From Paenibacillus sp. (lineage in GTDB: Bacteria; Bacillota; Bacilli; Paenibacillales; Paenibacillaceae), in NCBI GenBank assembly GCA_017512705.1, contig JAFWEX010000130.1, positions 62,001 to 126,000 on the forward strand: a stretch of DNA of 64,000 nt. Reading direction: 5' to 3'. Numbering within the stretch: the first letter of the stretch is position 1; each line of letters opens with the position of its first letter. The notes beneath the pieces are model-generated. The model ran no database searches and was not told where the DNA came from. It worked only from the letters and a program-made list of their open reading frames with translations. The position numbers were made by a program, and so were the translations under genes. Positions 40,211 to 42,200 of this stretch are shown here, in pieces.

Positions 40211-41202
40211 GAATCGTCATTGATGCCATGGGAGGCGATAATGCCCCTGCGTCAACTGTAGAAGGAGCTGTTGCTGCGGCACTGGAATGGGCGGATACAC
40301 AGATCGTTCTCGTTGGTGATGAAGCTAAGCTTGAACCTCTCTTAAGTCAATCAGGCACCCAACCAGCCAACCTGAGCATTCGGCACGCTTCTGAAGTGAT
40401 TGGTTCAGATGATGAGCCGGTAAAGGCAGTAAGACGTAAAAAAGATTCCTCCATGGTTGTAGCTGGTCGTATGGTTAAAGAAGGCGAAGCCCAGGCTATG
40501 ATCTCAGCAGGTAATACAGGGGCTCTAATGACGGCTGGTTTGCTCGTTGTGGGCCGGATGAACGGGATTGAACGTCCTGCGCTTGCACCTATGATTCCTA
40601 CGATGGATGATGTAGGCGTGCTTGCACTCGACTTGGGCGCTAACATGGATGCTAAACCGGAACATTTGGCACAATACGCGCTGATGGGTAGTTTATACAG
40701 GCAAAAAGTACAGGGAATTGCATCTCCAAGGGTAGGGCTGCTCAATGTAGGAACCGAGCCAGGCAAAGGGAATGAGCTGACCAAGGAGGCCTATCCGTTA
40801 CTTGAACAGATGCCCATCCGTTTTGTGGGGAATGTAGAGGCACGTGATGTCCTGACTGGTGCCTGCGATGTCTTGGTGTGTGACGGGTTTGCAGGCAACA
40901 TTCTGCTTAAATCACTGGAAGGTGCAGCAGGAGCTATTTTCGGTCTACTTAAAGAAAAGTTTACTTCATCTTTCAAAAATAAACTGGCAGCAGCCGTGCT
41001 GATGCCGGAATTGCGCGGATTAAAGAGCAAACTTGATTATACGGAGCACGGTGGTGCCCCATTGCTAGGTCTGAGTGGACTGGTCGTCAAAAGCCACGGT
41101 TCCGCGGACGGTAATGCGATCAAAAATGCCGTACGTCAAGCACGAATTGCAATACAAAACCAGCTGGTAGACAGCATATCTAAGGAAATTAGCGGGAAGT
41201 GA
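40207..41202 (+). CDS. plsX: Phosphate acyltransferase
   Basis: A 331-residue PlsX. It starts RIVIDAMGGDNAP and contains RRKKDSSMVVAGRMVKEGEA, ISAGNTGALMTAGL and DGFAGNILLKSLEG. It converts acyl-ACP to acyl-phosphate, the first step of membrane phospholipid synthesis, at the inner face of the membrane. Coupled to fapR by an ATGA overlap and to fabH by a GTGA overlap. Confidence 0.96.
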   Translation: MRIVIDAMGGDNAPASTVEGAVAAALEWADTQIVLVGDEAKLEPLLSQSGTQPANLSIRHASEVIGSDDEPVKAVRRKKDSSMVVAGRMVKEGEAQAMISAGNTGALMTAGLLVVGRMNGIERPALAPMIPTMDDVGVLALDLGANMDAKPEHLAQYALMGSLYRQKVQGIASPRVGLLNVGTEPGKGNELTKEAYPLLEQMPIRFVGNVEARDVLTGACDVLVCDGFAGNILLKSLEGAAGAIFGLLKEKFTSSFKNKLAAAVLMPELRGLKSKLDYTEHGGAPLLGLSGLVVKSHGSADGNAIKNAVRQARIAIQNQLVDSISKEISGK

Positions 41203-42200
41203 GTGACGAAATGAATAATTTGCGCCCAGTAGGGATTATTGGTACAGGTAAATATGTGCCTGAGAAAATTTTGACAAACAGTGATTTGGAAAAAATGGTC
41301 GATACGAATGACGAGTGGATCGTCAGCCGTACAGGAATTAAGGAGCGGCATATTGCTGCACCGGATCAAGCCACTTCTGACTTAGCCTATGAGGCAGCAT
41401 TAAAAGCGCTTGAATCTGCTGGTATGACAGGCAGTGATCTCGATCTGATTATTGTTGCTACGATTACACCGGATTCCTCTTTCCCGTCAACAGCTTGCAT
41501 TCTGCAGGATAAACTGGGTGCCAAGGGCGCTGCTGCTTTTGATTTGTCCGCTGCTTGTTCTGGATTTGTATATGGTCTTGCAACGGCAACCAGTTTCATT
41601 CAAAGCGGCATGTACAACAATGCGCTTGTGATTGGTGCAGATTGTTTGTCGCGTATTACAGATTATACAGACCGAAACACCTGTGTTCTTTTTGGTGATG
41701 GAGCCGGTGCTGTCGTTGTTGGTGAAGTTCCTGAAGGCCGTGGATTCAAAGCATTTGATCTTGGCGCAGAAGGTGCAGGAGGTAGCCTGCTTCAAATCTA
41801 AGGCGGTGGTTCACGTCTGCCAGCAAGTGCGGAAACGGTTGAGAATAAAAAGCATTATATCTACATGAACGGCCGTGAAGTGTTTAAGTTTGCCGTTCGA
41901 GTTATGGGTACCGCTACGATTGAAGTTCTTCGCAAAGCGGGCATGGATCGTACGGATGTTGATTTGTTCGTTCCACATCAGGCTAATGTGCGGATTATTC
42001 AATCGGCCATGCAGCGACTGGAGCTTCCCGAAGAGAAAGTGGTTGTCAATGTAGACAAATATGCAAACACATCGGCAGCATCCATTCCACTTGCGCTGGT
42101 TGAAGCAGCGGAAGAAGGCCGTATGAAAGCTGGAGATACCGTCCTGATGGTCGGATTCGGTGGCGGTTTGACTTGGGGCGCATCCGTACTCGTATGGTAA
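41199..42200 (+). pseudogene. fabH: 3-oxoacyl-ACP synthase III (fabH) with an in-frame stop codon
   Basis: The frame encodes FabH in full but is split by TAA at 41799-41801. Before the stop: VGIIGTGKYVPEK and the catalytic Cys in DLSAACSGFVYGL, ending GGSLLQI. After it, in the same frame: GGGSRLPASAE, MNGREVFKFAVRVMG, catalytic His in FVPHQANVRII, Asn in KYANTSAASIP, and the usual end GLTWGASVLVW. No bases are gained or lost, so one substitution (from GAA, CAA or AAA, for example) would explain it. The enzyme joins acetyl-CoA or branched acyl-CoA to malonyl-ACP. The truncated product lacks His and Asn and should be inactive. The downstream ATG at 41865 lacks a ribosome site. A start at ATG 41211 is also possible. 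Confidence 0.9.

What the first reader, a model, noticed from the sequence alone, without database searches (positions are those of the whole stretch)
41199..42200. fabH carries an in-frame TAA between two intact halves
TAA at 41799-41801 splits a full-length FabH frame without any frameshift. Conserved FabH sequence continues directly after it, including the catalytic His and Asn. FabH starts fatty-acid synthesis and is normally essential unless a second copy exists. Possibilities are a base-call error, a recent nonsense mutation tolerated because of a paralogue, or read-through. The sharp conservation on both sides means any loss is very recent.
Basis: partly seen in the sequence, partly recalled or inferred. 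Interest (0 to 1): 0.75.

Follow-up and report, generated by a model that had tools for sequence, protein, structure and literature searches.

The report
Nonsense codon in one fabH copy
One Paenibacillus draft genome has a single stop codon in the middle of a gene for an enzyme that starts fatty-acid synthesis, a gene that is intact in the relatives examined; a second copy of the enzyme is present, so this is most likely an ordinary recent loss or a base error in the draft.

Summary
In detail: an in-frame TAA at 41799-41801 splits an otherwise full-length FabH frame with no frameshift. It is private to this assembly. The 74 of 74 other genomes of the genus examined, one of the same species, have an uninterrupted frame. 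The 29 of 29 relatives whose codon I read have a sense codon for one and the same amino acid. On this branch fabH has 13 synonymous, 1 nonsynonymous and 1 stop change, so selection acted until lately. I saw no restart site. The genome has an intact second FabH behind a FapR-like box, closest among solved structures to an enzyme named synthase III 2. fabH is not alone: by a strict filter 5 of 572 genes are interrupted here against the same-species genome, and 0 of 581 the other way after my dismissals (raw flags 6 and 5). Sequence alone cannot separate a recent real null, tolerated because of FabH2, from a base error in a 159-contig, 94.8% complete draft. I favour the real null slightly. Read-through or a two-piece enzyme is unlikely. 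Ordinary finding.

The parts
41199..41798 (+). N-terminal piece of fabH (200 codons) with the Cys motif
   Evidence: PF08545 8.9e-32; NF006829 289.6 bits
41799..41801 (+). in-frame TAA, private to this assembly
   Evidence: sense codon in 29 of 29 relatives read
41802..42200 (+). C-terminal part of the fabH frame with the His and Asn motifs, to the native stop
   Evidence: PF08541 1.7e-39
41865..42200 (+). ATG ORF left after the stop (111 aa); no Shine-Dalgarno-like sequence seen before it
   Evidence: read by eye
39454..39470 (+). FapR-operator-like inverted repeat before the fapR-plsX-fabH-fabD-fabG-acpP-fabF genes
   Evidence: 3 mismatches on +, 2 on -, to a consensus recalled from memory; chance mean 0.08
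39608..40210 (+). fapR (named by eye from the translation)
40207..41202 (+). plsX (named by eye), open frame, overlaps the fabH start
42221..43165 (+). fabD (named by eye), open frame
43212..43961 (+). fabG (named by eye), open frame
44103..44345 (+). acpP (named by eye), open frame
44489..45760 (+). fabF (named by eye), open frame

Best explanation
A single-base nonsense substitution, private to this strain and very recent, ends FabH (the copy in the fapR-plsX-fabD-fabG cluster) after residue 200. The product lacks the whole C-terminal part, with the His and Asn motifs, so it should be inactive (inferred). Fatty-acid synthesis would be started by the intact second FabH (FabH2, contig C146). 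Its FapR-like box suggests that it is derepressed when malonyl-CoA builds up (inferred from B. subtilis). Shown here: the stop in the assembly, its absence in relatives read, the intact FabH2. Inferred: that the stop is really in the cells, and that FabH2 carries the load.
For: Stop confirmed. 74 of 74 other genomes of the genus have an open frame of 335-386 aa at this gene, against 132 aa here; 29 of 29 codons read are sense. On this branch fabH has 13 synonymous, 1 nonsynonymous and 1 stop change. FabH2 is intact, keeps the Cys/His/Asn motifs, is closest in the PDB to 8vdb 'synthase III 2' (453.9 bits), and has a FapR-like box at L002:319-335. 75 of 75 genomes of the genus have at least two FabH-like matches. 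In B. subtilis fabHB belongs to the fap regulon (PMC4525379, passages), FapR derepresses on malonyl-CoA (PMC10128001, passages), and lower FabHA shifts reliance to FabHB (PMC8144471, passages). Of the four other interrupted genes, the murA homologue has two intact homologues in this genome; that the other three are dispensable is my judgement.
Against: Nothing shows that the base is in the organism. The genome is a 159-contig draft, 94.77% complete, with four other interior interruptions among 572 genes, while I accept none of 581 in the same-species genome. That asymmetry also fits base errors. With most genes dispensable, finding the five in dispensable or duplicated genes is weak evidence. 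A second FabH does not guarantee that the first can be lost: in S. coelicolor FabH is called essential although FabH2 works (PMC11801535, passages).
Confidence: 0.5

Rival explanations
1. Base error in the draft assembly: the organism has an intact fabH.
For: Draft of 159 contigs, 94.77% complete, 5.17 Mb against 5.6 Mb for the same-species genome. Five interior interruptions (3 stops, 2 one-base deletions) in 572 genes here, none accepted in the other direction. fabH has only one other nonsynonymous change on this branch.
Against: Three stops by random error in about 632 kb of coding would need roughly one wrong base per 10 kb (my estimate, taking about 1 in 20 random coding changes to make a stop). 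Private nonsynonymous to synonymous counts show no excess here (187:646 against 196:721 in 80 genes), though this test is too weak to exclude it. The two deletions are in two-base runs, not long homopolymers. rpoB, polC, mraY and valS are uninterrupted. 28 of 31 residue differences from G043 in RpoB, RpoC, EF-G and EF-Tu have a BLOSUM62 score of 0 or more.
Confidence: 0.42
2. The stop is read through, or a suppressor tRNA is present, so full-length FabH is made.
For: The sequence after the stop is fully conserved, as it would be if still translated.
Against: The stop is in 0 of 29 relatives read, so it is not a maintained recoding site. TAA is also the native stop of fabH and the stop of fabD, fabG, acpP and fabF (5 of 9 genes of the neighbourhood read). 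Conservation is equally explained by recency. The tRNA scan covered three contigs, about 10% of the genome, so a suppressor tRNA was not really tested.
Confidence: 0.03
3. A two-piece FabH: both halves are made separately and assemble.
For: The stop falls in a loop that is shorter in 8vd9 and 1zow, between the two halves of the fold (recalled); an AGGAGGT stands at 41777-41783.
Against: No ATG, GTG or TTG stands 5-10 bases after that AGGAGGT; the first ATG in frame is at 41865, without a Shine-Dalgarno-like sequence (by eye); the 74 other genomes of the genus have a one-piece frame.
Confidence: 0.02

Closest known systems
FabH / beta-ketoacyl-ACP synthase III (NCBIfam NF006829, TIGR00747; PF08545 + PF08541); nearest solved relative 8vd9 'synthase III 1'
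   Same: Both pieces match, in order and in one frame; the same-species orthologue is an open 333-aa frame matching 8vd9 over residues 8-333
   Different: The window's frame is stopped after residue 200, so the encoded product lacks the C-terminal domain
FabHA/FabHB pair of Bacillus subtilis
   Same: Two FabH copies, one closest to 8vd9 (III 1), one to 8vdb (III 2) (that these entries are the B. subtilis pair is recalled); FapR-like boxes before both
   Different: fabH lies in the fapR-plsX-fabD cluster here, whereas B. subtilis has fabHA with fabF (PMC4525379, passages); one copy is interrupted here
Strain-specific nonsense pseudogene
   Same: Single private stop, intact orthologues, flanks under purifying selection until lately
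   Different: Not proven at read level; could be a base error

Membership tests
FabH (KAS III) | Complete two-domain protein above the family cut-off in one open frame | tested here: not met
   N piece alone passes NF006829 (289.6 vs 249) but not TIGR00747 (275.3 vs 292.1); C part 170.2 and 167.6; no single open frame
FabH (KAS III) | Cys, His and Asn motifs present in the gene | tested here: met
   AACSGF before the stop, FVPHQAN and YANTSAAS after it (roles recalled)
Recent nonsense pseudogene | Interior stop absent from orthologues | tested here: met
   0 of 29 codons read are stops; 74 of 74 frames open in the genus
Recent nonsense pseudogene | Stop present in the organism's DNA, gene product lost | not testable with these tools
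   No reads, no proteomics
Stop-codon read-through gene | Stop conserved among relatives | tested here: not met
   Stop is private: 0 of 29 codons read, 74 of 74 frames open
Stop-codon read-through gene | Recoding signal or suppressor tRNA | tested here: inconclusive
   Flanks only read by eye; tRNAs scanned in three contigs, about 10% of the genome, 2 tRNAs found, neither a suppressor
FapR-regulated second FabH (FabHB-like) | Intact FabH closest to the 'III 2' type | tested here: met
   C146 copy: open 338-aa frame, 453.9 bits to 8vdb
FapR-regulated second FabH (FabHB-like) | FapR operator bound in front of it | tested here: inconclusive
   Box at L002:319-335 with 3 mismatches to a consensus recalled from memory, chance mean 0.01; binding itself not testable

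The most novel reading that the evidence does not exclude
FabH is made here as two separate chains, or by read-through of TAA, and is still active: a natural split or recoded initiating condensing enzyme.
Probability: 0.03. Interest if true: 0.6.

Novelty: already known. Interest (0 to 1): 0.12.

Why it matters
If the stop is real, this is a natural strain that starts its fatty acids without the main FabH, which would let one test how far FabH2 alone can support growth and what it does to branched-chain membrane lipids. If it is a base error, the gene call and any inference of lost fatty-acid initiation in this draft should be discarded. Either way it is an ordinary event.

Tried and rejected
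Missing 16S rRNA as a sign of a poor or metagenomic assembly: none found in this genome, but none in the same-species genome either, so uninformative.

Nonsynonymous excess as a sign of base errors: no excess in 80 genes, but the power is low; I did not extend it with outgroups to the other contigs. That call counts 3 private stops here and 0 in G043; besides fabH they lie in a 243-aa ORF that I take for an antisense ORF (it carries stops in both outgroups too) and at residue 313 of a 315-aa gene.

Interruption of an indispensable single-copy gene as proof of base error: looked for in the ribosomal/rpo, dcw, polC and valS neighbourhoods. Only a murA homologue is interrupted, and two other murA-type genes are intact, so this does not decide.

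Flags of the strict filter that I dismissed. Seen in G000: a 179-aa ORF on the strand opposite to ribosomal genes. Seen in G043: a 126-aa ORF that I take for no gene, and a 361-aa ORF; a 163-aa ORF opposite to a ribosomal gene, and ORFs of 158 and 196 aa. The 361-, 158- and 196-aa ones align in frame from residues 55, 40 and 34 to their ends, so they are start extensions.

Looser filters flagged more: 9, 22 and 15 ORFs in G000 and 9, 20 and 9 in G043. I looked at 13 of the 18 and at 14 of the 37 in G000, and at none of the 29 in G043 singly, so I make no statement about the unseen ones. Two further G000 frameshifts, inside genes of 284 and 192 codons, look real but did not pass the strict filter; they are not in my count of five, and counting them would make it seven.

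Codon table: rows on the minus strand were not turned and are wrong there; one search replaces it.

Similarity to plasmid records: 30 records with partial matches, none covering 80% of the gene; no use.

Literature: 7 searches. Paenibacillus + fabH + premature stop found no paper; fabHA + fabHB + essential + double mutant found none. The library holds only open-licence papers.

Full report
Observation. The window is contig C10, bases 62001-126000, of a 5.17 Mb draft in 159 contigs, 94.77% complete. Named relatives of fabH at 97-98% protein identity are records labelled Paenibacillus xylanexedens, P. amylolyticus and P. polymyxa ISL-58. Contigs of 378,896 and 804,740 bases appear both among these and among the genomes called same genus, so I take the genus to be Paenibacillus. 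The frame 41199-42200 reads as FabH from end to end except for TAA at 41799-41801. Both sides match the FabH profile in continuous order.

The stop is private. Searching with the part after the stop, each of the 74 other genomes of the genus has an open frame of 335-386 aa at its best match; this genome has 132. In the family-wide search 393 of 394 genomes have a match; the listed rows other than this genome have frames of at least 329 aa, but the list was cut before all 393 were shown. Of 29 relatives whose codon I read, 29 have a sense codon for one and the same amino acid, including the same-species genome G043 at 97.1% identity over the gene.

Recency. Changes on each branch were polarised with two outgroup genomes in 80 ORFs of this contig. 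fabH has 13 synonymous, 1 nonsynonymous and 1 stop change here, and 7 synonymous and no nonsynonymous in G043. Selection therefore acted until lately, or still acts on an intact gene.

Background rate. I compared ORFs of at least 120 codons with a coding signature between this genome and G043. Three contigs gave 333, and five more contigs (whole or in part) gave 239, 572 in all. The script flagged 6 interior interruptions here; I dismissed 1 as antisense and kept 5: fabH (stop), a cystathionine-lyase-like gene (stop), a MocR/aminotransferase-like gene (stop), a PrkA-like gene (one-base deletion) and a murA homologue (one-base deletion). The names of the second to fourth are best matches under the curated cut-offs; the last is. 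In the other direction, over 581 ORFs, the script flagged 5. I dismissed 3 as start extensions, 1 as antisense and 1 as no gene. The asymmetry thus rests partly on my dismissals. Two more frameshifts in this genome seen under a looser filter are outside the count. So fabH is one of several interruptions, and the draft is either of lower base quality or from a strain that is losing genes.

Backup. The genome holds a second FabH of 338 aa on contig C146, 48% identical to G043's FabH, with the Cys, His and Asn motifs. Its best match among solved structures is 8vdb, 'synthase III 2', while the window's type best matches 8vd9, 'synthase III 1'. The calls do not name the organism of these entries; that they are the B. 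[quoted passage not shown] FapR-like boxes stand before the fapR cluster (window 39454-39470) and before FabH2 (L002:319-335). In B. subtilis malonyl-CoA makes FapR derepress (PMC10128001, passages) and fabHB is in its regulon (PMC4525379, passages). Two more distant KAS III-like proteins lie on C9 and C151. Against an easy reading: in S. coelicolor FabH is called essential although FabH2 works (PMC11801535, passages).

Mechanism. Best reading: a recent nonsense null of FabH, tolerated because FabH2 starts the chains. The truncated product lacks the C-terminal domain; the stop lies in a loop that is shorter in 8vd9 and 1zow. Near rival: a base error. For the rival: draft quality and the asymmetry. 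Against it: no nonsynonymous excess (187:646 against 196:721), deletions in two-base runs only, and 28 of 31 differences in four core proteins with BLOSUM62 of 0 or more; each is weak. The sequence alone cannot settle it. Read-through and a split enzyme are unlikely: the stop is in no relative read, and no start codon stands at the right distance from the AGGAGGT at 41777.

Verdict. Observation confirmed; interpretation partly supported; ordinary.

Noticed in passing
G000 C9:78106-79293 (-), C9:41296-42540 (-), C9:37253-39213 (-), C54:167588-168870 (+): Four other genes interrupted inside relative to the same-species genome: cystathionine-lyase-like, MocR/aminotransferase-like, PrkA-like and a murA homologue. 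Near the stop of the first, several changed bases lie close together.
   Followed up: partly
G000 C9:239337-240190 (-) and C9:163288-163863 (-): Two more frameshifted genes (284 and 192 codons in G043) seen under a looser filter.
   Followed up: no
L002:1-100: The contig with FabH2 begins in what looks like 5S rRNA (by eye), so the assembly breaks at an rRNA operon; the FabH2-type match is also near a contig start in several other draft genomes.
   Followed up: no
L201:13760-15838 against G000 C39:28812-30890: EF-G differs at 16 residues (59 synonymous codons) between two genomes of one species, more than RpoB (6) or RpoC (6), with a cluster at residues 298-305; possibly recombination.
   Followed up: no
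G000 C118:39615-40862, C65:7051-8292, C54:167591-168831: Three murA-type genes in this genome, one of them frameshifted.
   Followed up: no
L003:1039-2040: A more distant KAS III-like protein (333 aa) with Cys, His and Asn motifs (by eye).
   Followed up: no
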